Origin: Pseudomonadota bacterium
GTDB lineage: Bacteria > Pseudomonadota > Gammaproteobacteria > Burkholderiales > Thiobacillaceae
Direction of reading: 5' to 3'
Length of the DNA: 15,584 nucleotides
Assembly: GCA_021836225.1 (NCBI GenBank)
Contig: JAKBJA010000141.1
Span: forward strand, 1 to 15,584
Shown here: piece by piece, positions 1,689 to 15,584 of the stretch
Layout: every line of letters begins with the position of its first letter
Numbering within the stretch: the stretch's first letter is position 1
Position numbers and translations under genes: made by a program
The notes under the pieces: generated by a model
What the model was told of the DNA's origin: nothing
What the model saw: only the letters and a program-made list of their open reading frames with translations
Database searches by the model: none

Positions 1689-1695
1689 GGTGTCC

Positions 1696-3033: not shown

Positions 3034-3321
3034 GAAAAATGCTCCAAGTCAAAGGATAAAAACCAGGCTTGGACGGGACACCGTCTTGCGGATGAGTCAT
3101 CCAGACGCCGGGGGCTGGTGCCCCGACTGCGGCGCATTATCGTCGTGGGCGGTGATGGGCGTCAACAAAGTACCGGGCTCTTGTATCTACATAACCCGAA
3201 CTCAATAACCATTAATTATAATGAATGATTTCCATTAATAAACAATATTGTTGTTTATGGATGTTTGTTTTTAGGATGTGCTGGCGGTTCCCAATGTGTG
3301 CAGTCTTTGCAAAGGTCAACC
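3034..3321. promoter_or_regulatory. Divergent chrA / sbtA control region with AT-rich palindromes
   Basis: This 288-base gap separates the divergent CHR and sbtA genes. Its centre (about 3180-3265) is strongly AT-rich in a GC-rich window. It holds an ATAAACAA-N5-TTGTTTAT dyad (3238-3258) containing the perfect palindrome AACAATATTGTT (3241-3252), a TAATG-N9-CATTA dyad (3219-3237) and the element TTATAATGAAT (3216-3226). The last is found again, inverted, upstream of csoS2. TATAAT within it could be a -10 box on either strand because ATTATAAT is self-complementary, but no good -35 box lies at the right distance, as expected for an activator-dependent promoter. Control by the neighbouring LysR proteins is inference. 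Confidence 0.5.
3238..3258. repeat. 8-bp inverted repeat upstream of sbtA (operator candidate)
   Basis: ATAAACAA at 3238-3245 and TTGTTTAT at 3251-3258 are exact inverted copies with 5 bases between them, nesting a 12-base perfect palindrome AACAATATTGTT at 3241-3252. The dyad lies 64 bases before the sbtA start codon. It could bind a dimeric regulator; no U-run follows, so a terminator is unlikely. Confidence 0.5.
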
Positions 3322-4296
3322 ATGTTCAGCCTGTCCAATATGCTGATCCCGGCCATCCTGTTTTTTGCGCTGGGTTTCCTGGCGCAATTGATGCGCTCGG
3401 ATCTAAAGTTCCCCCCCGATCTGGCCAAGGCGCTTTCAATTTACCTGCTGGTGGGCATTGGCCTGCATGGCGGAATGGAATTGGCCAAGATCGATGCCAT
3501 CGATGCCATCGGTGCGATTGTCGCGGCATTGGGGCTGGGTTTCGGGCTGCCCATCGTCGCCTATCTCATTCTTTCGCATATCGTTCGTGTCGAGCGCCTC
3601 AATGCCGCCGCCATCGCGGCCCACTACGGATCGGTCAGCGCCGGCACCTTCGTCACTGCGATCGCATTTCTCGATTCACTGAAGGTGCCCTACGAAAGCC
3701 ATCCGGTGATCATGCTCGCCATCATGGAGTCGCCGGCCATCATCATCGGGCTCGCGCTCGCCAACATGGCGCGCAAGGGGGATGGCAACGGCCACCAGAA
3801 GCGGGTCAGCCGCGAACTGGTGCATGATGCCTTTACCAACGGCAGTGTCGTGCTGCTGCTGGGCAGCATGCTGATCGGCGCGATCGCCCAGCCTGCCGGG
3901 CTGAACAAGATCATGCCCTTTTACGAAACGATGTTCATGGGCGTGCTGTCCCTGTTCCTGCTCGATATGGGGATGGAGGCTTCGCGCCGGATCGGGGATT
4001 TCAAGAAGGTCGGCCCATCCTTGCTGGTGTTTGGCATCGCAATGCCGCTGATCGGCGGCATGGTCGGCCTGGCTGTAGGCCACTGGCTACTGGGGTTCGG
4101 GGTGGGCGGCACGCTGCTGGTTGCCGTGCTGGCGGCGAGCGCCTCCTACATCGCGGTGCCGCCCGCCATGCGCCTGGCAATCCCCGAGGCCAGCCCGGCG
4201 TTGTTCCTTACGCTATCGCTAGGCGTGACCTTCCCCTTCAATATCATCGTGGGCATCCCGCTATACTTCAGCGCAGCCCAGTGGATCGCCCATTAA
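3322..4296 (+). CDS. sbtA: SbtA-family sodium-dependent bicarbonate transporter
   Basis: The 324-residue product is almost entirely hydrophobic, with about ten membrane segments in two pseudo-symmetric halves. Family signatures are AAHYGSVSAGTF near residues 94-105 in the first half, and ASASYIAVPPAMR plus LGVTFPFNIIVGIPLY in the second. In cyanobacteria SbtA is a high-affinity Na+/HCO3- symporter of the inner membrane, feeding bicarbonate to the carboxysome. The protein is somewhat shorter than cyanobacterial SbtA, mainly through a short central cytoplasmic loop (GDGNGHQKRVSREL). The start is the ATG at 3322, because AAAGG (3311-3315) lies 6 bases before it; the frame extends 19 codons further upstream but without family-like sequence. 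The PII-like sbtB follows after 15 bases, the classical partner arrangement. Placement beside a carboxysome operon strongly supports a DIC role. Confidence 0.93.
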   Translation: MFSLSNMLIPAILFFALGFLAQLMRSDLKFPPDLAKALSIYLLVGIGLHGGMELAKIDAIDAIGAIVAALGLGFGLPIVAYLILSHIVRVERLNAAAIAAHYGSVSAGTFVTAIAFLDSLKVPYESHPVIMLAIMESPAIIIGLALANMARKGDGNGHQKRVSRELVHDAFTNGSVVLLLGSMLIGAIAQPAGLNKIMPFYETMFMGVLSLFLLDMGMEASRRIGDFKKVGPSLLVFGIAMPLIGGMVGLAVGHWLLGFGVGGTLLVAVLAASASYIAVPPAMRLAIPEASPALFLTLSLGVTFPFNIIVGIPLYFSAAQWIAH

Positions 4297-4311
4297 TCTG
4301 CAAGGAAGCTC

Positions 4312-4605
4312 ATGAAACCGGTCAAGCGCATCGAAATCGTCATCGAGGAAATCGAGCTCGAAAACGTCATTGGCGAACTCGATCGAATCGGCGTGGTCGG
4401 CTACACCATCGTGCCGCGTGCCGTCGGTCGTGGCGAGCGCGGGGTGCGCTGCGAAAGCGTGCAGGGGCTGGGCAACGTCCTGATGACCATTGCCTGCGAC
4501 GAGCGGCAGGCCAACCAGGTGATCGAGGCCATCCGGCCCATTCTCAAGCGCTACGGCGGTGTCTGTCTGGTGTCGGACGCGATGTGGGTCGTCCACGACT
4601 CATGA
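4312..4605 (+). CDS. sbtB: SbtB-like PII-family regulator of SbtA
   Basis: This 97-residue protein has the PII-like ferredoxin fold order: a beta strand RIEIVIEE, helix ENVIGELDRIGVVGYTIV, a flexible T-loop region near 36-49 (VPRAVGRGERGVRC), strand VLMTIACD and helix QANQVIEAIRPILKRYGG. In cyanobacteria SbtB is a trimer that binds adenine nucleotides, including cAMP and AMP, and inhibits SbtA. The cysteine-bearing C-terminal extension (CGPxGC type) of some cyanobacterial SbtBs is missing; the chain ends VVHDS. AAGGAAG lies just before the ATG. The gene is 15 bases after sbtA, so the two form one transcript. Its stop overlaps the convergent LysR gene by 6 bases. A sister PII-like family is possible, but the neighbour makes SbtB most likely. 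Confidence 0.87.
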   Translation: MKPVKRIEIVIEEIELENVIGELDRIGVVGYTIVPRAVGRGERGVRCESVQGLGNVLMTIACDERQANQVIEAIRPILKRYGGVCLVSDAMWVVHDS

Positions 4606-5556
4606 TCGGGTGACGCGGCGGGCCGACCGGGCGGCGGGCCGAAGTTTCGGCTGCGGCAGGGCGATCACCCGGTTGGCCTCGTTCAGCACGAAATCGTGGA
4701 AGGCCTGCGCAATCGGCGACATGCGCTTGCCGCTGCGGTGCACCAGATACCACTCCTTCATGATCGGAAAGCCTTCCACGCTGAGAATGGCGATGCGGTT
4801 CAGCGCCAGTTCGAACTCCAGCGTGTGCAGGGAGACGATGCCCAGGCCCAGGCCGGCCATCACCGCGTGCTTGGTCGCCTCGTTGCGGCTCATTTCCATC
4901 GAGGTATTGAGCTTGATCCCGCGTTGCGAGAAAAATTTTTCCACGGCATTGCGCGTTCCCGAGCCCCGCTCGCGCAGGATGAAATTCTCCTCCGCCAGTT
5001 GACCGAGGGGGATGCGGTTCATCTGCGCCAGCGGGTGATCCGGGCGGGCGATGATCACCAGCGGATTCTGCATGAAAGCCTGCGCGGTCAACTCGATGTT
5101 GTCCGGTGGCGTGCCCATGATCACCATGTCGGGAATGTTTTCCTGCAGCTGCGCAACCAGTTCCTCGCGGTTGGTGACTTCGAGGTGCACCTGCGTGCCC
5201 GGATGGTGCTTGATGAATTCCGCCAGCAGGTAGGGGGCGAAATACTTGCCGGTGCTCGTCACGGTCAGCGACAGGGCGCCGCGCTTGACCCCCTTCATGT
5301 CATCCAGCACCGACTCGACGTCGCGGAACTGCTGCGCGATGGTGCGGCTGAAGGCATACACCTCCTTGCCTGCCTCGGTCAGGTAGATCTTCTTTCCCAT
5401 CTGCTCGAATAGCGGCAGGCCGACTTCCTGCTCAAGTTGCTTGATCTGCGTCGAGACTGCCGGTTGCGTCAGGTGCAGTTCCTCGGAAGCGCGGGTGAAG
5501 CTGGAATTGCGCGCCACGGCTTCCAGCAGCCGCAACTGGCGAAACGTCACATTCAT
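4600..5556 (-). CDS. cbbR: LysR-type regulator, CbbR-like (copy 1)
   Basis: The 318-residue protein begins MNVTFRQLRLLEAVARNSSF and has the LysR winged helix-turn-helix at about residues 17-62 (FTRASEELHLTQPAVSTQIK, then EAGKEVY). It is followed by a periplasmic-binding-protein-like effector domain containing GSGTRNAVEKFF and GLGLGIVSLHTLEFEL. This matches CbbR, which activates Calvin-cycle and carboxysome operons in response to metabolites such as RuBP, PGA or NADPH. The ATG at 5556 has GAGGGG 7 bases upstream. It is divergent from csoS2 and convergent with sbtB, the position where CbbR normally controls cbbLS-cso. A dyad and an exact TATAAT (5626-5631, minus strand) lie in the shared promoter. 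It is clearly paralogous to the LysR gene at 14558-15475, so which of the two is the orthologue of CbbR cannot be said. Confidence 0.85.
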   Translation of the reverse strand: MNVTFRQLRLLEAVARNSSFTRASEELHLTQPAVSTQIKQLEQEVGLPLFEQMGKKIYLTEAGKEVYAFSRTIAQQFRDVESVLDDMKGVKRGALSLTVTSTGKYFAPYLLAEFIKHHPGTQVHLEVTNREELVAQLQENIPDMVIMGTPPDNIELTAQAFMQNPLVIIARPDHPLAQMNRIPLGQLAEENFILRERGSGTRNAVEKFFSQRGIKLNTSMEMSRNEATKHAVMAGLGLGIVSLHTLEFELALNRIAILSVEGFPIMKEWYLVHRSGKRMSPIAQAFHDFVLNEANRVIALPQPKLRPAARSARRVTRS

Positions 5557-5723
5557 GGTCGATCCCCTCGGTTACCCGGCGTGAAAAGCATTCATTTTGG
5601 TGAATGATAACAATAAATATTATTCATTATAAATTATGCATCGACGTCCGTATATTCACCTCAAGCGCGAAACCCGAGCGCGCCCGACCCAACGATCAAC
5701 AGCTGAAGCAAAGGAAGGCATCC
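5557..5723. promoter_or_regulatory. Divergent cbbR / csoS2 promoter region with LysR-type dyad
   Basis: This spacer stands where cbbL and cbbS would normally intervene. CATTCA (5589-5594) and TGAATG (5601-5606) form an exact dyad with 6 bases between, compatible with a T-N11-A LysR box. ATTCATT recurs at 5622-5628, and ATTCATTATAA (5622-5632) is the inverted form of the element upstream of sbtA. On the minus strand TATAAT (5626-5631) is a possible -10 for the regulator. A plus-strand promoter is not clear-cut: TATAAA at 5628-5633 lacks a good -35. AAGGAAGG near 5711-5719 is the csoS2 ribosome site. Confidence 0.55.
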
Positions 5724-7715
5724 ATGAGCGACGCGACCACAAGCACCCCAGAAGCGCGGCTGAGCGGCAGAGAGGCCGCAATCGCCCGTCGGCAGGCATT
5801 GTCCCGCTACGGGAAAGCCGCGCTGTCCGGCGCCAATGCCCCGGGGATCAGCAGCGCGACCGAAGCGCGCCTTGCTGCCCGCAAGGGAAACGCCGCACCT
5901 GCGCCGGCAATCATCCAGAGCGCGACGGGCGCAGGCACGCCTGCAACCCGCTGTGGCTGTCAACACGATGAAACCTTGTCCGCACGGGTTGAATACGCCG
6001 GTTCGACCTATACCCCGGAGCCTATCTCGGCTGCACGCCAGCGGCGCATCGAGCAGTCGCTGAAAGGTCGTGGCGATGTCCCGCCCTGTCGTCCGTGCGG
6101 TCGGGTGCGCCCCGAACCGCAAAAGGTCGAGCTGGGCACCACCCTGTCCGGCAGCACGGTGACCGGCAACCAGGTCGAGCGCACCCAGCGCGTGACCGGC
6201 AATGAATCCGGTACCTGCCGCAGCATTACCGGCACTGAATATGTCGGCGCCGAGCAGTTTGGCGAGTTTTGCGGTTCGCTGCCTGCCGCGTCACCGGCCA
6301 AGGTGGGAGCCAGCAGCACGAGTCGTGGCGGTCGTGTGACGGGGACCGAAGTTGGACGCAGCAGCAAGGTGACCGGCGACGAGACCGGTACCTGCAAGCG
6401 CGTGACCGGAACCGAATATATCGCTGCCGAGCAGGCTGACGAATTTTGTGGAACGTCGCCTGAGCCGCATCCGCAAAAATCCGCTTTTGGCATGACGGCC
6501 AGGAAAAACCCGATCAGCGGCGACGATCTCGCCCGCAAGGTCGATGTCACAGGCGGTGAGTCCGGCGCAAATCGCACGATTACCGGAAGCGCCTATATGG
6601 ATGCAGCCCCGTTTCGCAGTGGGCCGGGAGAAGCGCCAAAAAAGGTGGAAACCCGTCATACGAGCGCTGGCAGCGAGGTGAGCGGCACCCTGGTGGGTCG
6701 GTCGTCGAAAGTTACCGGCGATGAGTCCGGCGCCTGCAAGCGTGTGACGGGTTCTGATTACATCAGCGCCGAGGAATTCGCATCCTTTTGCCGTGCGGAG
6801 CCTTTCCAGCCGCCGGCCAAGGTGGGCGTGTCGCGCACCTTGAAGGGCCAGGATGTTTCCGGCACCCAGGTCGGGCGCTCGGCCAGCGTGACGGGGGACG
6901 AGTATGGCGCCTGCAAGCCGGTGACGGGCACGTCCTACATCGGGGCAGACCAGTACGCCGAATTCTGCGCCATCCGGGCCGCGGCTGAAGCCATCAACCG
7001 TGCGCGTCTTGGACGCAGCGCCGAACTGACCGGTATTCAGCCCGGCCCGGATGCCAAGTTGACCGGCAATGCGCGAGGCGAGTGCCAGGACGTGAGCGGC
7101 ACCCCTTATGTGGGCGAAGTTCAGCAAGCGAGCGCCTGCGGTCGTCCGCCGATGGCAAGCCATTACCGTGCCCGTGCGCCGGAAGGCGCGACGCCTGTCG
7201 CCGGCATCACCGGCAACGCGATGGACGCGCCAAGCGGTCGCCAGCCGGGTGATTTCTCGGTGGCCTCGCCTGCCCGCACGGCGCGGGACAGCGAAACCCG
7301 TCGGATTACCGGCAGTGCCTTCGGTGGCGCCGGGCGCATTACCGGATCGCTCGCACGCGCCACCGGTCTGGTGTCCGGAACGCCCGAATTCCGTTATCGC
7401 GATGGCAGCGAACCGGTGGCAGACAAGCCTGTTGAAGTGTCCCGTCCGGTTCCCGAGCGCATCACCGGAGAAGGCCGCGAGCGCAGCGTCACGGGCGACG
7501 CCTGGGACCGCGGCGGGCGCGTGACGGGCACCGAGGGGCGCTCCGCAGCGGGTCGCAACCCGACCCAGCGTGGCGATCCGCGTGGCAACGGCGTGAGCCC
7601 CCGCGTTCCCCGCGAAGCGGTGCAACCCGCAGCAGCCACGAGCCGTATCACGGGCAGCAGCGGCAACAGCCAGGGGGGCGCAGCCGTGACCCTGTCCGGC
7701 GGTGCACGCGGCTAA
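5724..7715 (+). CDS. csoS2: CsoS2, intrinsically disordered alpha-carboxysome assembly scaffold
   Basis: CsoS2 links Rubisco to the shell. The 663-residue product has three regions. N-terminal (1-135): one clear Rubisco-binding type motif near 12-34 (REAAIARRQALSRYGKAAL), a degenerate one near 45-57, and the terminal ARQRRIEQSLKGRGDVPPC element. Middle (about 137-473): six repeats rich in VTG/ITG and paired cysteines (165/183, 224/242, 338/356, 398/415, 454/472; the third repeat has none). C-terminal (474-663): ends SRITGSSGNSQGG...LSGGARG, the conserved shell-binding peptide. The start is the ATG at 5724, behind AAGGAAGG; the frame stays open 40 codons upstream but with no CsoS2-like sequence. 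Halothiobacillus CsoS2 is well over 800 residues with four N motifs, so this one is short, mainly at the N-terminus. An in-phase A AAA AAG heptamer at 6638-6644 may yield a short isoform. Confidence 0.97.
   Translation: MSDATTSTPEARLSGREAAIARRQALSRYGKAALSGANAPGISSATEARLAARKGNAAPAPAIIQSATGAGTPATRCGCQHDETLSARVEYAGSTYTPEPISAARQRRIEQSLKGRGDVPPCRPCGRVRPEPQKVELGTTLSGSTVTGNQVERTQRVTGNESGTCRSITGTEYVGAEQFGEFCGSLPAASPAKVGASSTSRGGRVTGTEVGRSSKVTGDETGTCKRVTGTEYIAAEQADEFCGTSPEPHPQKSAFGMTARKNPISGDDLARKVDVTGGESGANRTITGSAYMDAAPFRSGPGEAPKKVETRHTSAGSEVSGTLVGRSSKVTGDESGACKRVTGSDYISAEEFASFCRAEPFQPPAKVGVSRTLKGQDVSGTQVGRSASVTGDEYGACKPVTGTSYIGADQYAEFCAIRAAAEAINRARLGRSAELTGIQPGPDAKLTGNARGECQDVSGTPYVGEVQQASACGRPPMASHYRARAPEGATPVAGITGNAMDAPSGRQPGDFSVASPARTARDSETRRITGSAFGGAGRITGSLARATGLVSGTPEFRYRDGSEPVADKPVEVSRPVPERITGEGRERSVTGDAWDRGGRVTGTEGRSAAGRNPTQRGDPRGNGVSPRVPREAVQPAAATSRITGSSGNSQGGAAVTLSGGARG
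6638..6644 (+). promoter_or_regulatory. Candidate -1 ribosomal frameshift site (A AAA AAG) in csoS2
   Basis: The bases A|AAA|AAG sit in the correct phase for -1 slippage (codons Lys306 and Lys307 at the third/fourth middle-repeat junction). This is the heptamer used in E. coli dnaX. After slippage the -1 frame adds 26 codons and stops at TGA 6722-6724, predicting a 333-residue isoform. Only weak stem-loops (such as CGCT-GGC-AGCG at 6665-6675) are visible downstream. A frameshift-derived short CsoS2 isoform is known in Halothiobacillus; use of this site is inference. Confidence 0.5.
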
Positions 7716-7737
7716 ATCAACGACACGACGGTAAACG

Positions 7738-9333
7738 ATGATGGATACCCGCAAACGCCGTGAACGCTTGCACCAGACGGCTCATGCCGCCCCGGTGGGC
7801 ATGGCGATGCGCCCCCAACCGGCCGCCGCCCCGGCCGCGGTGCCGAACTGGCCGCAGCGGCCGAGCTTCTGCCCGCCCTGCAACGGTGCGGAGGGCCGGG
7901 ACGAATGCGTGCGCGCGTCGTGCGCACCGCGTGCGCACCCGCTCGCCGACCCGGTGCAGAACGCGCAACTGGCGGACTACGAACGGGCGGTGCGGGCACG
8001 TTTCGACGCCATTGTTCCGGTGCTCAGGCAGATCGCAGCGCTGCAGCATGAAGCCGGGTTCGAGATGCAGGCGCAGGCGATCGCACGCGAGCAGCTGGGC
8101 TTCGAGTTGCCCGCCGATGTGCTGGCAGATGCCTGGGTCACCACGCTGGACATGCGCAAGCTGTATGGCCACAGCGTGCTCCACACCTTCCGTGACCTGG
8201 TGCGGGATGCCTGGGCGCAGCCGCACAACGGCGCAGCCGAGGCGGCAGCGATGATGCGCTTCTTCATCGAATGCGGCTTCCATGAAGTGGATGTGAGCGC
8301 CTGCGCCGATGGCCGCCTCAAGGGCCTGCTGCACTACATCCTGCGCCTGCCGCAACAAGCAGTGCGCCGGCACAAGTCCTACGCCGGCACCCTGTTCGAT
8401 GTCGAGGCGAATGTGAAGCAGTGGACCGAGACCGAGCTGCGCCGATTCCGCGAAGGCCTGCCGACGCTGCCGGACGCGGGTACGCGCTACCTGAAGATCG
8501 CGGTGTACCACTTCAGCAGTTCGGACCCACATCACGAAGGCTGTGCGGCCCACGGCAGCGACGACCGTCGTGCAGCCCAGGCAGCGCTGGACCGGCTGAA
8601 TGCCTTTGGCACCGTGATCGAAAACGGTTTCTGCTGCGGCGCTTCGGTGGCGACATTGCTGATCGGTGTGGATACCGACAACGATGCCATCCGGGTGCAC
8701 GTGCCGGATGCGCAGGGCAACATGAACCTCGATTGCCACGTCGACAACATGGCGCTGTTCCAGGCGACATCCGGCCGCAACGCATCCGATGCGCGCTGGC
8801 GGCTGGGCGCCAGCGTCGAGGAGGCTGCACGCCTGCATGGCCGCAGTGTGCCGGAACCGGGCATGCGTCGCCTGATCGAGCGCCTGCTGGAAAACAACCT
8901 GTCGCAGATCGACTACGTCTGTGCGCAGCATCAGGGCCGCTATGCCGACGTCGGTCACGCCGAGCGCTTCATCAGCATCGGCGACGGCTTCGACGAGGTG
9001 CACCTGCGCAACCTGGCCTACTTCGGTCACCTGCACACGGTGGAAGAAGGCGCGGCGGATATCGATGTGGGCATCCGCATCTTCAGCCGCCTCAACGTGG
9101 CGCACGGTTTGCCGATCCCGGTGGCGATCCACTACCGCTACGACAGCCAGGTGCCGGGGGCGCGCGAACGCAGTGTCGAGCGCTGCCGCCGGGTGAATGC
9201 GGCGATCGAAAACCGTTGCCCGTCGCTGGTCAGGGAGGGCCTGCTGGTGTGCGGCATGACGGTCCAGGCGAGCCAGGCGGGCAGCCCCCTGGAAGAGATT
9301 GAAGTGAACACCGTTGGCATGCACGGGCATTGA
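7738..9333 (+). CDS. csoSCA: CsoSCA, carboxysomal shell-associated carbonic anhydrase
   Basis: The enzyme dehydrates bicarbonate to CO2 inside the alpha-carboxysome (older name CsoS3, epsilon/beta-type). The 531 residues keep the three-domain layout: a variable N-terminal arm (about 1-70, proline/alanine-rich with several cysteines), a helical domain, the zinc domain, and a degenerate C-terminal duplicate (about 390-531). Zinc ligands can be placed as Cys189, His258 and Cys269, with the catalytic pair Asp191 and Arg193 (CADGR). All lie at a constant offset of 16 from the Halothiobacillus residues, which argues for an active enzyme. The N-terminal arm is the part that contacts Rubisco in Halothiobacillus. 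Translation can start at either of two adjacent ATGs (7738 or 7741); the ribosome site is weak and the gene follows csoS2 by 22 bases. Confidence 0.97.
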   Translation: MMDTRKRRERLHQTAHAAPVGMAMRPQPAAAPAAVPNWPQRPSFCPPCNGAEGRDECVRASCAPRAHPLADPVQNAQLADYERAVRARFDAIVPVLRQIAALQHEAGFEMQAQAIAREQLGFELPADVLADAWVTTLDMRKLYGHSVLHTFRDLVRDAWAQPHNGAAEAAAMMRFFIECGFHEVDVSACADGRLKGLLHYILRLPQQAVRRHKSYAGTLFDVEANVKQWTETELRRFREGLPTLPDAGTRYLKIAVYHFSSSDPHHEGCAAHGSDDRRAAQAALDRLNAFGTVIENGFCCGASVATLLIGVDTDNDAIRVHVPDAQGNMNLDCHVDNMALFQATSGRNASDARWRLGASVEEAARLHGRSVPEPGMRRLIERLLENNLSQIDYVCAQHQGRYADVGHAERFISIGDGFDEVHLRNLAYFGHLHTVEEGAADIDVGIRIFSRLNVAHGLPIPVAIHYRYDSQVPGARERSVERCRRVNAAIENRCPSLVREGLLVCGMTVQASQAGSPLEEIEVNTVGMHGH

Positions 9334-9342
9334 GGTGAAGCG

Positions 9343-9594
9343 ATGAAGATCATGCAAGTGGAAAAGACGCTGGTTTCGACCAACCGCGTCCGGGAAATGG
9401 GCCACCGCCCGCTGCTGGTAGTGCGCGAAAAGGCAGGCGCTGGGCGTCAGGTGGCGGTGGATGCGGTGGGCTGCATCCCGGGCGACTGGGTGATTTGCGT
9501 CGGCAGTTCGGCTGCGCGCGAGGCGGCGGGTGCCAAGGATTTTCCGAGCGACCTGACCATCGTCGGCATCATCGACCACTGGCAGGAGCACTGA
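9343..9594 (+). CDS. csoS4A: CsoS4A, pentameric carboxysome vertex protein
   Basis: This 83-residue BMC-P (Pfam EutN/CcmL type) protein begins MKIMQVEKTLVSTNR and contains VAVDAVGCIPGDWVICVGSSAARE and DLTIVGIIDHW, which is close to a textbook CsoS4A. Five copies close each icosahedral vertex of the shell, giving gas-tightness. The start at 9343 has AGGTGA just upstream and matches the usual CsoS4A N-terminus. It lies 9 bases after csoSCA and one base before csoS4B. Confidence 0.97.
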   Translation: MKIMQVEKTLVSTNRVREMGHRPLLVVREKAGAGRQVAVDAVGCIPGDWVICVGSSAAREAAGAKDFPSDLTIVGIIDHWQEH

Positions 9595-9595
9595 A

Positions 9596-9892
9596 ATGGA
9601 AATCCTGCGCGTGGTGTCCGACCTGGTGTGCACCCGGCGTATTCCGGGCTTGTACAGCGCCTCGCTGAGGGTGCTGGCGGACGAGAAGGGCAGGCTTTCG
9701 GTGGCGGTCGACCCCGTGGGCGTGCCGGAAGGCAAATGGGTTTTTACCGCCGGCGGCTCGGCCGCCCGCTACGGCGCCGGCGATTACAAGGTTCTTACCG
9801 ATCTGACGATCCTCGGGATCATCGATCAGTGGAATGCGGAGGAAGGCCTCCGCGAGCAGGCAGCAGGCAAGGCAGTTTTATCAACCGTGTAA
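9596..9892 (+). CDS. csoS4B: CsoS4B, second pentameric carboxysome vertex protein
   Basis: This 98-residue paralogue of the preceding gene is again a BMC-P vertex protein, beginning MEILRVVSDLVCTRRIPG with VAVDPVGVPEGKWVF, SAARYGAGDY and DLTILGIIDQW. AGGAG lies near 9584-9588, inside the end of csoS4A, so translation is probably coupled. The C-terminal tail (EEGLREQAAGKAVLSTV) extends about 15 residues beyond the fold compared with csoS4A; its role is unknown. The stop codon overlaps the ribosome site of the first csoS1. Confidence 0.96.
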   Translation: MEILRVVSDLVCTRRIPGLYSASLRVLADEKGRLSVAVDPVGVPEGKWVFTAGGSAARYGAGDYKVLTDLTILGIIDQWNAEEGLREQAAGKAVLSTV

Positions 9893-9904
9893 AGGAGAAA
9901 CATC

Positions 9905-10204
9905 ATGGCAAGCGCAATGACGGGCATCGCCCTCGGAATGATTGAAACACGTGGTCTGGTTCCCGCCATCGAGGCGGCGGATGCCATGACCAAGGCGGCC
10001 GAAGTGCGGCTGATCGGACGCCAGTTCGTTGGTGGCGGGTATGTGACCGTGCTGGTGCGCGGCGAAACCGGTGCGGTCAACGCGGCGGTGCGTGCGGGGG
10101 CCGACGCCTGCGAACGGGTGGGTGACGGCCTGGTGGCGGCACACATCATCGCGCGTGTTCACAGCGAAGTGGAGAACATTCTTCCCACCGCTGAAGCAGC
10201 TTGA
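9905..10204 (+). CDS. csoS1A: CsoS1 hexameric shell protein (first copy)
   Basis: This 99-residue BMC-domain protein has GIALGMIETRGLVPAIEAAD at residues 7-26 and the pore loop FVGGGY at 41-46. Hexamers tile the shell facets, and the central pore passes bicarbonate and sugar phosphates. AAAGGAG precedes the ATG at 9905 with good spacing, fitting a highly translated shell gene. The first 93 or so residues are almost identical to those of the next gene (visible differences at positions 3, 4 and two near 87-91). Whether to call it CsoS1A or CsoS1C cannot be decided from sequence alone. Confidence 0.97.
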   Translation: MASAMTGIALGMIETRGLVPAIEAADAMTKAAEVRLIGRQFVGGGYVTVLVRGETGAVNAAVRAGADACERVGDGLVAAHIIARVHSEVENILPTAEAA

Positions 10205-10524
10205 TTTTGATTGAAACGTACTTTTAAGGAGATCTGAAATGGCTACCGGAATGACTGGCATTGCATTGGGCATGATTGAAACCCGCGGTCTGGTTCCCGC
10301 GATCGAGGCGGCGGATGCAATGACCAAGGCGGCGGAGGTGCGGCTGATCGGCCGCCAGTTCGTCGGCGGCGGTTATGTCACCGTCCTCGTTCGAGGTGAA
10401 ACCGGCGCAGTCAACGCGGCGGTGCGTGCCGGCGCGGATGCCTGTGAGCGTGTGGGCGACGGCCTGGTCGCCGCCCACATCATCGCCCGCGTGCACGGCG
10501 AGGTGGAGGGCATCCTGCCCACCG
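9905..10524 (+). repeat. Tandem direct duplication of csoS1 coding sequence
   Basis: Bases 9905-10190 and 10239-10524 encode nearly the same protein and share long identical DNA runs, with differences mostly at third codon positions. This is a 334-base tandem spacing. Such pairs are liable to recombination or gene conversion. It is a common arrangement for csoS1 genes. Confidence 0.9.
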
Positions 10525-10580
10525 AGCCGAGCGCAGCGGGAGGTGGCCGCGATGGTGAGGTGGCGTGCGTCTTCGCCTAG
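10239..10580 (+). CDS. csoS1B: CsoS1 hexameric shell protein (second copy, longer C-terminus)
   Basis: This 113-residue BMC-domain shell protein is nearly identical to the preceding copy through residue 93, with the same FVGGGY pore loop, but ends in a 14- to 15-residue longer tail (EPSAAGGGRDGEVACVFA). The longer C-terminus resembles CsoS1B, the longer hexamer of the Halothiobacillus operon. AAGGAG lies 7 to 12 bases before the ATG at 10239. The 34-base gap to the first copy is AT-richer than its surroundings. The tail cysteine is a notable addition. Confidence 0.95.
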   Translation: MATGMTGIALGMIETRGLVPAIEAADAMTKAAEVRLIGRQFVGGGYVTVLVRGETGAVNAAVRAGADACERVGDGLVAAHIIARVHGEVEGILPTEPSAAGGGRDGEVACVFA

Positions 10581-10612
10581 GCGATGACGCACCGCTTTAC
10601 GAGGAGCAGGGC

Positions 10613-11062
10613 ATGGCAATGGATCCACGACTACTGGGTTATCTCAACCGGGCACTGGGCCATGAAATGGCAGCGGTTCAGCAGTACATGGCCCAGTCCA
10701 AACTGTGCGACCTGTGGGGTATGGCCGAGTACTGCAGCCATTTCCGCAAGGACGTCATCGAAGAACTGGGGCACGTGGAAAGCCTGATGGGCGCGCTGCT
10801 CAAGCTCGGTGTGACGCCGCATGCCACACAGCTGTCCCCGGTGCGACTGGGGCGCACGCTGGAGGAAATGATCGAAATCGACCGCGTGCTGGAAGTCGAG
10901 GCGGTTCGTCTCTACGAGGAAGCGGCGGCCTATTGCACACGGGCGCGCGATTTCTCTCATAACGCGCTGTTCGCGCAGATACTTCGCGACGAACTGCAGC
11001 ATCTGGATGAACTGGACACGATGGGGGCAGCCCTGCATGAAAAGGAGCGAAGCTATGGTTGA
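10613..11062 (+). CDS. Bacterioferritin-like protein of the carboxysome operon
   Basis: This 149-residue four-helix ferritin-fold protein is of the type found downstream of csoS1 in many cso operons. All six di-iron ferroxidase ligands are at the bacterioferritin positions: Glu18, Glu51, His54, Glu94, Glu127 and His130. The haem-ligand methionine (Met52 in E. coli Bfr) is replaced by leucine, so no inter-subunit haem is expected. Its job in carboxysome biology is unsettled; iron or redox handling is inferred. The start is the ATG at 10613, with GAGGAG at 10601-10606; the frame opens earlier, but that part overlaps csoS1 and is not ferritin-like. Its stop overlaps the acRAF start by 8 bases. 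Confidence 0.92.
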   Translation: MAMDPRLLGYLNRALGHEMAAVQQYMAQSKLCDLWGMAEYCSHFRKDVIEELGHVESLMGALLKLGVTPHATQLSPVRLGRTLEEMIEIDRVLEVEAVRLYEEAAAYCTRARDFSHNALFAQILRDELQHLDELDTMGAALHEKERSYG

Positions 11063-11324
11063 AGACGGCAATCCGATCCCGGGCTGGCAGCGGCAGGACC
11101 TGCCGCCGACGCTGAGCCGGCGTTTCGAGTTCGAGAGCTATCCGGAGACCCGGCGTTTTCTCGACGGTGTCGCCAGCCTCGCTGAAGCAGCGCAGTACTA
11201 CCCCAACCTGAGCTTCGGCAAGACCTACGTCAGCGTCACCCTCGACGCCGACGGCAAGAAACTCACCCCCGACATCGTGTCGCTGGCGCAGAAGATCGAC
11301 GCGCTGGCGACAAACGCGGGATAG
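11055..11324 (+). CDS. acRAF, pterin-dehydratase-like alpha-carboxysome Rubisco assembly factor
   Basis: This 89-residue protein has the pterin-4a-carbinolamine dehydratase fold (RRFEFESYPETRRFLDGVASLAEAA, then TYVSVTLDADGKKLT). The catalytic histidine pair of true dehydratases is replaced by Tyr48-Tyr49 before Pro50, as in the Rubisco accumulation factor acRAF found in cso operons, so pterin chemistry is unlikely. The known role is to help fold or assemble form IA Rubisco. The ATG at 11055 is chosen over an earlier in-frame start because AAAGGAG lies 7 bases before it and the upstream part overlaps the ferritin gene. Its presence is striking because no Rubisco gene is in the operon. Confidence 0.92.
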   Translation: MVEDGNPIPGWQRQDLPPTLSRRFEFESYPETRRFLDGVASLAEAAQYYPNLSFGKTYVSVTLDADGKKLTPDIVSLAQKIDALATNAG

Positions 11325-11331
11325 CCCGGAC

Positions 11332-11970
11332 ATGACCGCGTTGCGGATCGCCGTGGCGAATCAGAAGGGCGGGACCGGGAAGACCACGCTGACGGTCAAT
11401 CTCGCAGCCGGCTTCCACCGTCGCGGCAAAACCGTGCTGCTGGATACCGATCCGCAGGGTTCGGCGCGTGACTGGGTGCGTATCGGCGGCACGGACAGCG
11501 ACCTGCCGCCGCTGCATGAGGTGACTGCCGACGAGGCCAGGACGCGCATCGCGCAATTCGCCGCAGCAAGCCGGTTCGTGCTGGTCGACTGCCCGCCGCA
11601 CCTGCAGTCGGTGGCGCTGGGCCAGGTGCTGGGGGCGGTGGACCTGGTGCTGATTCCGGTCCAGCCCTCGCCGCTCGATCTGTGGGCGAGCATCGACATG
11701 GCTGCCGCGGTAAAGGATGCGCGATCCGGCAACCCGCGCCTGCGGGCATACATGGTGTTCAACCAGCTCGACAGCCGCAACGCGCTGTCGCGCTCGATGC
11801 ACCAGGCGCTGGCCGAGTTCGAGGTGTTGGCGCTGGAAAACGGACTGGCGCGCCGTGCGGCATTCCGCAACGCGGCACTGGAAGGCGGCAGCGTCTACCG
11901 TCTGGGTGCGCGCGGCAAAAGTGCGGTGAGCGACGTCGAATCAATCATCAAGGAGGTACTGAGCGTATGA
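11332..11970 (+). CDS. mcdA: McdA, ParA-type carboxysome positioning ATPase
   Basis: The 212-residue protein has a deviant Walker A KGGTGKTT (12-19, with signature Lys12), Walker A' DTDPQG (38-43) and Walker B VLVDCPP (83-89). It is a short ParA/MinD family protein without an N-terminal DNA-binding domain. In alpha-carboxysome bacteria McdA coats the nucleoid and, with McdB, spreads carboxysomes along the cell. A generic plasmid or chromosome ParA is excluded by position: it lies 7 bases after acRAF and its stop overlaps the start of the next small gene in an ATGA. No strong ribosome site is visible, so coupling to acRAF is likely. Confidence 0.93.
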   Translation: MTALRIAVANQKGGTGKTTLTVNLAAGFHRRGKTVLLDTDPQGSARDWVRIGGTDSDLPPLHEVTADEARTRIAQFAAASRFVLVDCPPHLQSVALGQVLGAVDLVLIPVQPSPLDLWASIDMAAAVKDARSGNPRLRAYMVFNQLDSRNALSRSMHQALAEFEVLALENGLARRAAFRNAALEGGSVYRLGARGKSAVSDVESIIKEVLSV

Positions 11971-12170
11971 ACAAGGTATCCAGCAAGTTGGCAGCCGGGG
12001 TGCGCAAGGTGAAGGCGCAGCAGGCTGAAGCACCCGCGGCGGCAAAGCCGTCACGTTCCGGTGGCGGAACACGTGTCACGCGAGATAGCGGCGTGGACGT
12101 GCCCGCGAAACAGGCTGCCCGCAGCGGCGCCGGTTCGGTCCAGCATCCGCAACGCGTCTGGCCGGACTAG
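11967..12170 (+). CDS. mcdB: McdB candidate, small disordered carboxysome positioning adaptor
   Basis: This 67-residue, very basic, Ala/Lys/Ser/Gly-rich protein is predicted to be disordered, with a short possible amphipathic start (NKVSSKLAAGVRKVKAQQ). It ends HPQRVWPD, with Trp65 two residues from the last. A single tryptophan near the C-terminus is the recurring mark of McdB proteins, which bind carboxysomes and stimulate McdA. The gene overlaps mcdA by 4 bases (ATGA), has AGGAGG at 11951-11956, and sits just after mcdA as McdB does elsewhere. It is shorter than well-studied McdBs and no fold can be verified, so the call rests on position plus composition. Confidence 0.78.
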   Translation: MNKVSSKLAAGVRKVKAQQAEAPAAAKPSRSGGGTRVTRDSGVDVPAKQAARSGAGSVQHPQRVWPD

Positions 12171-12370: not shown

Positions 12371-12416
12371 AAGCCGGGATGGCGGGCCCTGTGTGACTGG
12401 CATGACGGAGAAACCC

Positions 12417-14552
12417 ATGAATACACGCACGACGCCTTACCTGAAACGGATATTCCCGTTTTTGTCGTGGTTTCCGATGACGCGCCAGAGCGTGCGCGCC
12501 GACATCCTGGTGGGTATCACTGTTACCCTGATCCTGGTGCCGCAGAGCATGGCCTATGCGCAACTGGCAGGCCTGCCGGTCGTATACGGCCTGTATGCCG
12601 CCTTCCTGCCGGTGATCGTCGCGTCCCTGTGGGGCTCGCTGCGCCAACTGCACACCGGGCCGACCGCCATGCTCTCGCTGATGTCGGCCGCGGCGCTGAT
12701 TCCCTACGTTGCCGTGGGCAGCGAGGACTTCATTACGCTTTCCATCATGCTGGCGCTGATGGTCGGCATCCTGCGGCTCGCTATGGGATTGTTCCGTCTG
12801 GGGCTGGTGGTGAATTTCCTGTCGCACCCTGTGATCATCGGTTTCACTAATGCCGCCGCGCTGATCATCGGCCTGTCGCTGCTCAACAAATTGATCAATG
12901 TGCCGATGCCGCGCACCGAGTTCTTCCTCGGCGATCTGTGGGTCGTGCTGCAGCAGCTGGGCAATACCCACTGGCCGACCCTGATGTTCGGCCTCGCCGC
13001 CTTCGCCATCATCTTCTTCCTGCAAAAGCGTGCGCCGCGGCTGCCCAGCGTGCTGATCGCCATCGTGATCACCACCATCGCCAGCTATGCCGTGAGTTTC
13101 GAGCGCAACGTGAAGACCGATCTCGACGCCATCCGGGATGAGGGTCTGCGCGCGCAGATCGTCCGTCTTGGCGAAATCGCTGGCGAGATCAAGCGCAACG
13201 GAGAGGAAATGAGCCACCTGCAGGCGCAATTCTCGACACTCGAGGAGCGCGGCGAGGCCACCCTGAACGAACAGCTGGACGTCAGATCTGAGATCGAGCG
13301 CCGCAAGCTCGCGATCAAAAAGCTGACCCGGGAACAGATGGATCTGCGCATCCAGCTGCATCTGGTCGACATCACCCGCCAGCCCCAGCCCGACGGCGAG
13401 GTGCATTACGTCGTCGCCGGGCGGATTGCCGGAGGCGAACCGGTGGGGGTCGGGCACTGGCGTTTCGGCAATATCGACGGCGACCAGGTCAGGCTGACCG
13501 GTGGCGGCGAGGTGGTCGGAACGATTCCCTCGGGTCTGCCCGGGTTCCAGGTGCCGCAAATCGACTGGAAACTGGTGCTGCCGCTGCTGCCGGCGGCGCT
13601 GATCATGGCCCTGCTCGGTTTCATGGAGGCGACCTCGATTTCCAAGGCCATCAGCGCGAAGACCGGGCAGCGCATCGATACCAACCGCGAGAGATCGGAG
13701 CAGGGTCTGGCGAACATCGTAGGCAGCTTCTTTCACGCCTACGTCGTCAGCGGCTCCTTCTCACGCTCGGCCGTGGCTGCCCGGGAGGGCGCCAGGACCG
13801 GGCTGTTCGCCATCGTCAGCGCCCTCGGGGTGATGCTGGTGATCCTGTATTTCACGCCGCTGTTGTATCACCTGCCGCAGGCGGTGCTGGCGGTGATCAT
13901 CATGTGCGCGGTGTTCGGTCTGGTGCGGATCCGGCCCATGGTCCAGGCCTGGAAAGTGAATCGCGCGGATGCGGCGATCGGCATCGCGACCTTCCTGGCG
14001 ACGCTCGCCATGGCGCCAGCCCTGGCCAACGGCATCCTGCTCGGCGTGGTGCTGACGATCGGGCTTTATCTAAGCCGCAACATGCGCCCGCGGGCAGAAA
14101 TCCTCGGCCGGCATCCGGACGGGGTGCTGGGCGGGATCGATAGCTACCGCCTCCCGGCCATCAGCGATCGCTATGTCGTGCTGCGCTTTGACGGCTCGCT
14201 GAATTTCGTCAACGTGGCCTATTTCGAGGAGGTGGTGCTGCAGGCCCTAGGGCGCTTTCCCGAGGCGAAAGCGATTCTCGTAATCGGCAACGGCATCAAC
14301 GATCTCGATGTGTCCGGAGGGGAAATGCTGCGGGCCCTGACGCAGCAGCTCCGTGAGGCGGGCGTGGAGCTGTATTTCAGCAGCCTCAAGCGGCAGGTCA
14401 TGGCGGCCTTCGAAAAGGGCGAACTTGCAGGCGCCATTCCGGCCGACCACATCTTCAAGACCAAGGAGCAGGCGCTCAAGGCGATGGATGAGCGCTACGG
14501 CAGCCTGGCGGACCCCCTGCAAAAGGGTCGGCCCGAGTTATGTGAAACCTGA
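12417..14552 (+). CDS. SulP-family bicarbonate/anion transporter with STAS domain and large insertion
   Basis: The 711-residue protein starts with the SulP membrane domain (about 25-226: ADILVGITVTLILVPQSMAY, AGLPVVYGLYAAFLP, then TGPTAML). Residues about 227-365 are a soluble insertion: a charged, probably coiled-coil stretch (RAQIVRLGEIAGEIKRNGEE to ERRKLAIKKLTREQ), then a small strand-rich part. The core resumes at VVGTIPSGLPGFQVP and continues to about 552. A STAS domain follows (about 574-695, with NDLDVSGGEML around Ser633). SulP proteins move sulfate or bicarbonate (as cyanobacterial BicA); next to a cso operon, bicarbonate uptake is most likely. The ATG at 12417 is chosen because GGAG (12407-12410) lies 6 bases before it; ATG 12402 is an alternative. 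The gene is 246 bases after mcdB, so it may have its own promoter, and it is convergent with the second LysR gene with 5 bases between. Confidence 0.9.
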   Translation: MNTRTTPYLKRIFPFLSWFPMTRQSVRADILVGITVTLILVPQSMAYAQLAGLPVVYGLYAAFLPVIVASLWGSLRQLHTGPTAMLSLMSAAALIPYVAVGSEDFITLSIMLALMVGILRLAMGLFRLGLVVNFLSHPVIIGFTNAAALIIGLSLLNKLINVPMPRTEFFLGDLWVVLQQLGNTHWPTLMFGLAAFAIIFFLQKRAPRLPSVLIAIVITTIASYAVSFERNVKTDLDAIRDEGLRAQIVRLGEIAGEIKRNGEEMSHLQAQFSTLEERGEATLNEQLDVRSEIERRKLAIKKLTREQMDLRIQLHLVDITRQPQPDGEVHYVVAGRIAGGEPVGVGHWRFGNIDGDQVRLTGGGEVVGTIPSGLPGFQVPQIDWKLVLPLLPAALIMALLGFMEATSISKAISAKTGQRIDTNRERSEQGLANIVGSFFHAYVVSGSFSRSAVAAREGARTGLFAIVSALGVMLVILYFTPLLYHLPQAVLAVIIMCAVFGLVRIRPMVQAWKVNRADAAIGIATFLATLAMAPALANGILLGVVLTIGLYLSRNMRPRAEILGRHPDGVLGGIDSYRLPAISDRYVVLRFDGSLNFVNVAYFEEVVLQALGRFPEAKAILVIGNGINDLDVSGGEMLRALTQQLREAGVELYFSSLKRQVMAAFEKGELAGAIPADHIFKTKEQALKAMDERYGSLADPLQKGRPELCET

Positions 14553-14557
14553 CGGAC

Positions 14558-15475
14558 TTACGACTGGGCCTGCAATGACAGCACGGTGGTCGCCTCGTCG
14601 AGCAGGAAGCTCTTGAACGCCAGCGCCACCGGCGATAGCCGTTTGTCGGCGCGGTGCACGATGTACCAGTGGCGCATGATGGGAAAGCCCTCGACCTTGA
14701 GTATGGCGAGCCGCTTCAGCGCCAGTTCCATTTCCAGCGTCTGCAGCGACAGGATGCCCAAGCCGAGGCCCGCTTGCACCGCCTGCTTGATCGCTTCGTT
14801 GCTGCTCATTTCCATGCTGCTCTGGATTTCCAGTCCGCGGGCAGCGAAGAAACGCTCCATCGCGCCGCGGGTACCGGAGCCGGCTTCGCGTACCAGGAAG
14901 GATTCGGCGGCCAGATCTTCGATGGAAATGCTTTTCTTGCGGACCAGCGGATGGTCGGGTGGGGCGATCGCCACCAGCGGGTTGTCCATGAAGCGGGTGG
15001 CCTCCAATTCCAGCCCGTCCGGCACCTGGCCCATGATGGCGAGGTCGATGCGGTTGGCGGCGAGCTGATCGAGCACCGACTCGCGGTTGGACACGCCCAG
15101 ATGGATCGACACCCCGGGATGGCGGCCGCGGAAGCGGACCAGGATGCCGGTGGCGACGGCGTTCACGGTCGAGGTCACGGCAAGGTTGAGGCGGCCGCTG
15201 TCGATGCCCTGCAGCTGCGTGAGGTTGGCCTGCAGGTCGTCGAGCCGCGCGGTGATGGCGCGGCTGGCGTGCAGCACCTCGCGTCCGGCCTCGGTCAGGA
15301 AGATCTTCTTGCCCAGCTGTTCGGTGAGCGGCAGGCCGAGGATGACCTCGATCCCGCGCACCTGCATGGAGACCGCGGGCTGCGACAGGTGCAGTTCCTC
15401 GGCCGCGCGGGAAAACGACAGGTGGCGGGCGACGGCCTCAAATACCCGGAATTGGCGGAGCGTCAGTCGGCGCAT
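14558..15475 (-). CDS. LysR-type regulator, CbbR-like (copy 2)
   Basis: The 305-residue protein has a winged helix-turn-helix at about 16-65 (FSRAAEELHLSQPAVSMQV) and an effector-binding domain with GSGTRGAMERFF, SMEMSSNEAIKQAV and GLGLGILSLQTLEMEL. The last segments match the LysR gene at 4600-5556 nearly residue for residue, so the two are paralogues of the CbbR type. The ATG at 15475 is preferred because it starts the family-typical RRLTLRQFRVFEAVAR. A GTG at 15502 would add 9 residues but lies within a palindrome (15497-15514), and neither start has a strong ribosome site. It is convergent with the SulP gene and divergent from whatever lies beyond the right edge. Carbon-supply control of the transporter or the unseen neighbour is inferred. 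Confidence 0.85.
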   Translation of the reverse strand: MRRLTLRQFRVFEAVARHLSFSRAAEELHLSQPAVSMQVRGIEVILGLPLTEQLGKKIFLTEAGREVLHASRAITARLDDLQANLTQLQGIDSGRLNLAVTSTVNAVATGILVRFRGRHPGVSIHLGVSNRESVLDQLAANRIDLAIMGQVPDGLELEATRFMDNPLVAIAPPDHPLVRKKSISIEDLAAESFLVREAGSGTRGAMERFFAARGLEIQSSMEMSSNEAIKQAVQAGLGLGILSLQTLEMELALKRLAILKVEGFPIMRHWYIVHRADKRLSPVALAFKSFLLDEATTVLSLQAQS

Positions 15476-15496
15476 GAACCTAGAAACCGCAGTTGG

Positions 15497-15514
15497 ACGC
15501 ACCCGATGGTGCGT
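15497..15514. promoter_or_regulatory. Perfect 7-bp palindrome upstream of the second LysR gene
   Basis: ACGCACC and GGTGCGT are exact inverted copies separated by CGAT, 22 bases from the LysR start codon. It could be an autoregulatory operator or a 5' hairpin. The LysR T-N11-A pattern is not matched, so the binder is uncertain. Confidence 0.45.
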
Positions 15515-15546
15515 TTGGGCGGGTGTCTGCCGCGAAGCAGCGAGAG

Positions 15547-15582
15547 CGGGGCTGTTGCCGCGTTAGCGGCTTTACAGCCCCG
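15547..15582. repeat. Strong nested hairpin at the right window edge
   Basis: CGGGGCTGT (15547-15555) pairs with ACAGCCCCG (15574-15582), and inside it GCCGC (15557-15561) pairs with GCGGC (15566-15570) around a GTTA loop. That is 14 pairs with short bulges. No T-run is visible before the window ends. It may be an intergenic repeat or a leader structure of the divergent gene to the right. Confidence 0.6.
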
Positions 15583-15584
15583 GC

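What the first reader, a model, noticed from the sequence alone, without database searches (positions are those of the whole stretch)
5557..12170. Alpha-carboxysome operon without its Rubisco genes
The sequence shows csoS2, csoSCA, csoS4AB, two csoS1, a ferritin-like gene, acRAF, mcdA and an mcdB candidate in canonical order. Yet cbbL and cbbS, which normally sit between CbbR and csoS2, are missing and there is no remnant in the 167-base gap. acRAF, the Rubisco assembly factor, is retained, so Rubisco is presumably supplied from elsewhere. The shell and cargo would then be separately regulated.
Basis: partly seen in the sequence, partly recalled or inferred. Interest (0 to 1): 0.75.

Follow-up and report, generated by a model that had tools for sequence, protein, structure and literature searches.

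The report
Carboxysome operon without its Rubisco genes
A sulfur-oxidising Thiobacillus relative keeps the genes for its carbon-fixing protein shell apart from the genes for the enzyme that should fill it, an arrangement already known in this genus, and its scaffold protein has only one clear enzyme-gripping repeat where most relatives of the usual kind have three or four.

Summary
Confirmed, but largely already known. The window (a Thiobacillus sp.) holds an intact alpha-carboxysome operon under purifying selection, with no cbbL/cbbS or trace of them. The arrangement is in print for T. denitrificans, T. thioparus and other Thiobacillaceae (PMC9164163, PMC5248467). Relatives supply Rubisco from nearby: among 60 relatives searched, all 11 genomes with this locus and at least 90% completeness carry form I (IAq-type) cbbLS, and 10 of 11 also a form II-like gene. 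The nearest genome, G001, seemed to have form II only, but its form I locus falls between two contig ends. New here: CsoS2 of this locus type has exactly one strong Rubisco-binding N-repeat in 28 of 28 full-length loci, against two or more in 60 of 64 linked loci across the class. In 31 of 31 rows the repeat's first residue (Arg or Ser) goes with CbbS residue 94 (Asp or Asn), a hint that the separate form I enzyme is the cargo, but only one independent contrast on the tree. Three genomes of another genus with cbbL also apart from the shell genes keep three strong repeats, so the single repeat marks this clade, not unlinking as such. The cargo itself is untested.

The parts
3265..4296 (+). SbtA, sodium-dependent bicarbonate transporter
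   Evidence: Pfam Sbt_1 E 8.8e-114
4312..4605 (+). SbtB-like PII protein beside SbtA
   Evidence: Pfam P-II E 3.3e-16
4600..5556 (-). LysR regulator (CbbR1), divergent from csoS2
   Evidence: Pfam LysR domains; same place in 24 of 30 loci
5557..5720 (.). intergenic region where cbbL-cbbS would sit in a typical locus; no remnant
   Evidence: tblastn best E 0.15 in the whole window
5721..7715 (+). csoS2, 664 aa, with one strong N-repeat (SGREAAIARRQALSRYGKA)
   Evidence: NCBIfam CsoS2 models, below their cut-offs; PDB CsoS2 chains E 7.5e-127; repeat scans
7738..9333 (+). csoSCA, carboxysomal carbonic anhydrase
   Evidence: TIGR02701 656 bits; CADGR at residue 189 and HEGC at 266
9343..9594 (+). 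csoS4A vertex protein
   Evidence: TIGR02703
9596..9892 (+). csoS4B vertex protein
   Evidence: TIGR02704
9905..10204 (+). csoS1 shell hexamer, first copy
   Evidence: 93% identical to the second copy
10239..10580 (+). csoS1 shell hexamer, second copy
   Evidence: NF053791 182.8 bits
10604..11062 (+). bacterioferritin-like protein
   Evidence: Pfam Ferritin E 6e-23
11058..11324 (+). acRAF (pterin dehydratase fold)
   Evidence: Pfam Pterin_4a E 3.2e-9; named acRAF from its place in the operon
11332..11970 (+). McdA, ParA-type ATPase
   Evidence: NF041546 and ParA-family hits; McdA by place in the operon
11967..12170 (+). McdB candidate, 67 aa
   Evidence: no Pfam hit; conserved after mcdA in G001 (96%), G007 (53%), G018 (51%), L139 (51%), G017 (42%)
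12393..14552 (+). SulP-family anion transporter with STAS domain
   Evidence: Pfam Sulfate_transp and STAS
14558..15502 (-). second LysR regulator (CbbR2), probable start ATG at 15475; its counterpart faces cbbM in G001
15478..15584 (.). repeat at the contig end, in place of the cbbR2-cbbM promoter of relatives

Best explanation
This is a complete, maintained alpha-carboxysome shell and scaffold operon of the unlinked Thiobacillaceae type. Shown: operon content, absence of Rubisco genes, purifying selection, the same layout in many species, and form I (IAq-type) cbbLS elsewhere in well-assembled relatives. Inferred: the form I enzyme, made from a separate locus (about 1 to 20 kb away where both lie on one contig in relatives) with its own LysR gene, folds with help of acRAF, is bound at the CbbL-CbbS groove by the single N-repeat of CsoS2, and is enclosed in a CsoS1/CsoS4 shell with CsoSCA; SbtA/SbtB and SulP supply bicarbonate and McdA/McdB space the particles. 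Because each CsoS2 has one strong grip instead of three or four, Rubisco would be tethered to the shell rather than cross-linked into a network by CsoS2 alone. Form II CbbM, next door in several relatives, most likely stays cytosolic.
For: 11 of 11 genomes with this locus at completeness 90% or more have a small-subunit and a form I large-subunit match; 10 of 11 have a second, form II-like match, checked as CbbM by tblastn in 9; G019 has none. G001's missing form I is explained: contig C358 ends inside its LysR gene and contig C113 ends inside its cbbO. CbbL residues D26, Y72, D99, F346, D360, G362 are kept in all 11 full-length form I CbbL of these genomes (Y72, D99, F346, G362 as contacts from PMC10614612 passages, D26 and D360 recalled). 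CbbS 96 is aromatic (Phe) in all 11. The first residue of the CsoS2 repeat and CbbS residue 94 agree in 31 of 31 rows: Arg with Asp 25, Ser with Asn 6. Purifying selection. T. thioparus, with the same one-repeat CsoS2, shows carboxysomes by electron microscopy (PMC5248467, passages and section 12).
Against: The 31-of-31 match rests on one independent contrast (sign test not significant), and Asn94 also occurs in form I of genomes in which no csoS2 was found. CbbL of these genomes is of non-carboxysomal (IAq) make at discriminating sites, and a non-carboxysomal CbbL of T. crunogena was not packaged in H. neapolitanus (PMC2570492, passages and section 11). The contact residues are kept in most same-genus genomes without a cso match too, so they do not discriminate. 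T. denitrificans shows no carboxysomes by microscopy (PMC9164163, section 8). The window's own genome was not available.
Confidence: 0.72

Rival explanations
1. The cargo is form II Rubisco (CbbM), encoded just beyond the operon, alone or in turn with form I.
Against: H. neapolitanus CbbM is not in its carboxysomes (PMC9040747, PMC2570492 passages). G019 (94% complete) has the operon but no second Rubisco match. In G007, L133, L139, L142 and L144-L147 the Rubisco downstream of the operon is form I. Form II lacks the small subunit that forms part of the CsoS2 site (established knowledge). In the window itself the cbbM promoter is not beside cbbR2.
Confidence: 0.08
2. The compartment works without Rubisco inside, as a carbonic-anhydrase or other compartment.
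For: No cbbLS in the operon; fewer CsoS2 repeats.
Against: acRAF and an N-repeat are kept; the repeat's first residue and CbbS94 match; I know of no use for a shell without Rubisco.
Confidence: 0.06
3. The operon is a decaying relic.
For: T. denitrificans shows no carboxysomes (PMC9164163); csoS2 of G001 has an in-frame TAG.
Against: dN/dS 0.02-0.34, intact reading frames in the window, conserved layout in many species, carboxysomes seen in T. thioparus (PMC5248467).
Confidence: 0.04
4. Assembly or binning error removed cbbLS.
For: The contig ends in a repeat.
Against: The LysR-csoS2 junction is alike in 24 of 30 loci, two of them in single-contig genomes G012 and G024.
Confidence: 0.01

Closest known systems
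Unlinked csoS1-4 loci of Thiobacillaceae (T. denitrificans, T. thioparus, Annwoodia, Sulfuritortus), PMC9164163 and PMC5248467
   Same: Gene content, no cbbLS upstream of csoS2, form I cbbLS some kilobases away in the published genomes.
   Different: Another species; SbtA-SbtB in front (also in G001, G007, G016, G029, L126), only two csoS1 genes in the operon, and a repeat at the cbbR2 start.
Typical alpha-carboxysome locus of Halothiobacillus neapolitanus and of the linked loci in the same genus (G005, G021, G023, G027 and others)
   Same: Shell, scaffold and carbonic anhydrase genes and their order.
   Different: There cbbLS precede csoS2, and CsoS2 has more N-repeats: four in H. neapolitanus (PMC4499774 Table 1), at least three strong ones in 9 of 10 linked genus loci.
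Unlinked loci of another genus, G348, G092, G240
   Same: The only large-subunit match of the genome lies about 12-13 kb from csoS2.
   Different: CsoS2 keeps three strong and one weak N-repeat, and no second large-subunit match was found.

Membership tests
alpha-carboxysome (cso) locus | CsoS2, CsoSCA, CsoS4A, CsoS4B, CsoS1 encoded together | tested here: met
alpha-carboxysome (cso) locus | form IA cbbL-cbbS at the head of the operon (typical locus) | tested here: not met
   no hit better than E 0.15
alpha-carboxysome (cso) locus | particles that enclose Rubisco | not testable with these tools
   needs microscopy and proteomics
Unlinked Thiobacillaceae cso locus (PMC9164163) | csoS1-4 complete, cbbLS separate in the same genome | tested here: inconclusive
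   met for the locus; the window's own genome is not held; met in 11 of 11 relatives of at least 90% completeness
Unlinked Thiobacillaceae cso locus (PMC9164163) | CsoS2 with at least one [RK]x5[HKR]R motif | tested here: met
   REAAIARR in the window; G007, G018, G019, G029, G033, L124, L136 have none in strict form
Carboxysome with form II cargo (hypothetical) | cbbM linked to the operon in the same genome | tested here: inconclusive
   yes in G012, G026, G030, G009, L138 and, across a contig break, G001; the window ends in a repeat
Carboxysome with form II cargo (hypothetical) | genome without form I Rubisco | tested here: inconclusive
   not testable in the window's own genome; G001's apparent lack is best read as an assembly gap; form I in 11 of 11 more complete relatives

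The most novel reading that the evidence does not exclude
A shell with exchangeable cargo: a CsoS2 reduced to one Rubisco-binding repeat lets the same carboxysome take up either the form I or the form II enzyme encoded in the neighbouring slot, so that Thiobacillus swaps the enzyme inside its carboxysomes with growth conditions.
Probability: 0.06. Interest if true: 0.85.

Novelty: new member of a known kind. Interest (0 to 1): 0.42.

Why it matters
Whether the 'non-carboxysomal' IAq Rubisco of these bacteria can be packaged is stated as open in PMC9164163. The one-repeat CsoS2 and the CbbS94 match turn that into simple binding tests, and they point to a natural minimal scaffold: current models have CsoS2 cross-link Rubisco through several repeats, yet T. 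thioparus, with visible carboxysomes, has one strong repeat. That bears on how many repeats an engineered carboxysome needs.

Tried and rejected
1. Form II as sole cargo looked strong after (G001: one Rubisco match, form II, beside the operon). It was set aside when contig ends showed the form I locus of G001 to lie in an assembly gap, and because G019 has no second Rubisco match and other lineages have form I in the slot.

2. CsoS2-contact residues in CbbL as a test of cargo: not discriminating, kept also in most same-genus genomes without a cso match. In that table the row 'G001' is CbbM, caught as best hit, and is left out of my counts.

3. 'Unlinking goes with one repeat' as a general rule: rejected, G348, G092 and G240 are unlinked with three strong repeats. 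Four linked loci have one or no strong repeat (L271, L295 one; L291, L294 none).

4. Arg/CbbS94 covariation as statistical proof: rejected, one independent pair. The pattern was first seen; nine further genomes looked at afterwards (eight in the tree, one with a partial CbbS) all agreed. G020 is labelled 'noCso' in that tree, but its CbbS place is that of the genome of L141, which holds a cso fragment with csoS2 cut.

5. cbbM just right of the window, from the window's own letters: rejected, the last 107 bases match a repeat and not the promoter.

6. The N-domain boundary rule used failed outside Thiobacillus; those counts were discarded and replaced by whole-protein scans.

7. Rows dropped from the repeat count: L100 (G001, in-frame stop), L104 (G009, N-run), L123 and L141 (csoS2 cut by contig start), duplicates of the same genome, and 3 of 71 class loci open at the 5' end. 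L286 is full length but its contig begins 6 bases before csoS2, so its linkage is unknown.
Full report
WHAT IS THERE. The window codes, left to right: a cut DsrC/TusE-like frame (name recalled), a membrane transport protein (Pfam Mem_trans), a rhodanese-like gene and a two-part Chr-type transporter (names from reading, no family search), SbtA, SbtB, a LysR gene on the minus strand, then csoS2, csoSCA, csoS4A, csoS4B, csoS1, csoS1, a ferritin-like gene, acRAF, mcdA and a 67-aa mcdB candidate, a SulP transporter, and a second LysR-type gene on the minus strand. No CbbL, CbbS or CbbM similarity better than E 0.15 exists in the window. The LysR-csoS2 junction is short and constant: 24 of 30 loci of this type have a divergent LysR gene 158-343 bases from csoS2, 4 do not (G033, G018, L136, L144), 2 cannot be told (G019, L124; 534 bases of upstream sequence without cbbS). 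Window versus G001 dN/dS is 0.02-0.34 across eight operon genes.

WHOSE IT IS. The own assembly is not held. The nearest held genome, G001, is a Thiobacillus sp. MAG (same contig as L122, isolate C41_concoct.bin.8; CsoSCA 98% identical) with 85% completeness in 390 contigs. G012 has the contig length 2,909,809, which I recall as that of T. denitrificans ATCC 25259. A csoS2 cluster on a contig of the length of G024's is named T. sedimenti. L137 is T. thioparus DSM 505.

WHERE THE RUBISCO IS. Of 60 relatives, 23 have a CsoS2 match, all among the 36 genomes of the same genus. They fall in two kinds: a short-CsoS2 kind like the window in 15 genomes, with no cbbLS next to csoS2, and a long-CsoS2 kind in 8 genomes with cbbLS upstream; one of these, G035, also has a short-CsoS2 locus with cbbLS upstream. 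CbbS before csoS2 is seen on the same contig in 9 of these 10 linked loci; L118 of G008 is cut before it. So a typical locus does occur in the genus, against the suggestion in PMC9164163 that separation may be a trait of the whole family; G004 and G035 hold two loci each and have 8 and 6% contamination. Of the 15 genomes with the unlinked kind, 11 are at least 90% complete, and 11 of 11 have form I cbbLS elsewhere; 10 of 11 have a second, form II-like large-subunit match, 9 of them checked as CbbM. The four less complete ones: G001 form II only, G009 partial CbbS and form II, G018 partial form I and form II but no CbbS, G028 partial form II only. Ten further genomes were reached through named loci with CsoSCA of this kind (in L123 the csoS2 start is cut, so its linkage is unseen): eight have two large-subunit matches, one scoring like each form (G069's second is partial); G061 and G064 have none, G064 a partial CbbS. 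T. thioparus is among the eight, while no cbbM is mentioned in its genome paper (word search; section 12 read).

THE G001 TRAP. G001 first looked like a carboxysome bearer with form II alone. Its contig C234 (ferritin to cbbR2, cbbM, cbbQ) overlaps contig C358 by an exact 94 bases; C358 carries the rest of cbbQ, then cbbO, then about 7 kb, and ends inside the form I LysR gene; contig C113 ends inside cbbO of the form I locus (its last 231 codons, 91% identical DNA to G016). The missing middle, cbbL, cbbS, cbbQ and most of cbbO, thus falls between two contig ends. That form I fills the gap is inference, a strong one.

THE SLOT DOWNSTREAM. Within about 5 kb after the last cso-operon gene, behind a LysR gene, comes cbbM in G012, G026, G030, G009, L138 and G001, but form I cbbL in G007, L133, L139, L142, L144, L145, L146, L147 (L133 is cut within cbbL). 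In other genomes both lie farther off or on other contigs (G006, G016, G017, G024, G029). In the window the bases beyond the start of the second LysR gene do not match the AT-rich cbbR2-cbbM promoter of relatives but sequence found elsewhere in G016 (three places, 86-89%) and G001 (one, 83%), with the last 41 bases at one other place in each (85%); none in G012 or G024. What lies right of 15584 is therefore inference.

CSOS2 WITH ONE GRIP. A weight matrix for the Rubisco-binding N-repeat, scored over whole CsoS2 proteins, finds exactly one strong repeat (15 bits or more; shuffled maximum 2.6 in 124) in 28 of 28 full-length unlinked loci of the Thiobacillus type, including T. denitrificans, T. 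thioparus and the window. That matrix was built from repeats that include these. A matrix from linked genus loci alone gives one match of 14.8-41.5 bits in each, plus in some a weak second match of at most 10.2 bits. Linked loci in the genus: 9 of 10 have at least three strong, G035's short one has one strong and one weak. Across the class (369 genomes searched, 72 with CsoS2, 71 loci fetched besides G001's), the 64 linked loci (cbbS within 400 bases upstream), all full length at the 5' end, have strong repeats 0:2, 1:2, 2:8, 3:42, 4:9, 5:1. G348, G092 and G240 have no cbbL before csoS2 in the stretch fetched and their only large-subunit match 12-13 kb away, yet three strong repeats; G240 has a lone CbbS-like frame 1 kb upstream. 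So one repeat marks this clade. Cai et al. 2015 (PMC4499774, passages and sections 9 and 10 read) list 2 to 5 N-repeats in seven representatives, none of the genus Thiobacillus; their full table of 165 sequences was not seen. PMC9164163 (sections 4 and 8 and passages read) says that all atypical loci have at least one motif. In strict form seven loci here have none: the first Arg is Ser in G007, G018, G019, G029, G033, L124, L136. I found no report of the one-repeat state in the searches, of which I saw listings and passages of some papers; the library lacks most subscription papers, among them Oltrogge 2020.

A HINT AT THE CARGO. In H. neapolitanus CsoS2 and CsoSCA bind one groove formed by two CbbL and one CbbS, with CbbL Y72 and CbbS Y96 prominent and CbbS D94 near the CsoSCA peptide (PMC10614612, passages); CsoS2 is reported to engage CbbS (PMC6180065, abstract). 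In the unlinked genomes the form I CbbL is of IAq make but keeps the contact residues. At CbbS 94 the residue matches the CsoS2 repeat: with Arg as first repeat residue it is Asp (25 rows, 7 of them linked loci), with Ser it is Asn (6 rows); 31 of 31 rows, from 30 genomes since G004 counts twice. The second, degenerate repeat loses an Arg in the Ser clade too (for example SAARQRR to SAAQQRR, read). On the CbbLS tree, built without the columns around 94, residue 94 changes twice and the motif once; the T. thioparus group (Asp, Arg) sits inside an otherwise Asn clade. That is one independent contrast, not significant. It is the pattern expected if the distant form I enzyme is the partner of CsoS2, and no more than a hint. 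That the Arg touches D94 is not known to me.

HOW IT LIKELY WORKS. Shown: operon, conservation, form I elsewhere in relatives, one-repeat scaffold. Inferred: form I enzyme assembled with acRAF is tethered by CsoS2's single repeat, while the multivalent middle and C-terminal regions hold the shell (roles from PMC11365436 and PMC12918739 passages). Separate LysR genes for cso, cbbM and cbbL would let shell and enzyme be set independently, as PMC9164163 proposes for separate loci. Against it: a non-carboxysomal CbbL of T. crunogena is not packaged in H. neapolitanus shells (PMC2570492, passages and section 11), and T. denitrificans has shown no carboxysomes (PMC9164163, section 8).

VERDICT. A confirmed, ordinary member of a published kind, with a new and testable detail in the scaffold.

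Noticed in passing
window 15478-15584: Repeat at the contig end, starting at the second LysR gene where relatives have the cbbM promoter; its first part recurs at three places in G016 (86-89%) and one in G001 (83%), none in G012 or G024.
   Followed up: partly
window 3265-4605 and 12393-14552: SbtA-SbtB before and SulP after the operon: a bicarbonate-uptake and carboxysome cluster in one stretch; SbtA-SbtB also in G001, G007, G016, G029, L126.
   Followed up: partly
window 1314-3033: Rhodanese-like gene and two-part Chr-type transporter; in G006, G007, G017 and G029 the same trio sits beside cbbR2-cbbM instead, so it may belong to inorganic-carbon uptake.
   Followed up: no
window 7738-7950 (CsoSCA N-terminus): N-terminus with a conserved WP[QE]RxS[FY]C stretch in the unlinked loci, absent from the linked genus loci (read); I did not see the PRLDLIEQA motif of H. 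neapolitanus in either, by eye.
   Followed up: no
L002 / L100 (G001 csoS2): In-frame TAG in csoS2 of the nearest genome, after 294 residues of the frame; sequencing error or real.
   Followed up: no
L124 csoS2: Mosaic CsoS2: N-terminal domain nearest G018/G033, next segment nearest the window and G001, most of the rest nearest G007.
   Followed up: partly
L256 2593-2835: CbbS-like frame about 1 kb upstream of csoS2 without a CbbL hit beside it, in an unlinked locus of another genus.
   Followed up: no
G004 and G035 (L114-L117): Two carboxysome loci of the linked kind in one genome each; could be contamination (8 and 6%).
   Followed up: no
G067:C1:998198-999091: T. thioparus carries a second large-subunit match scoring like form II besides form I; no cbbM mention found in its genome paper.
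   Followed up: partly
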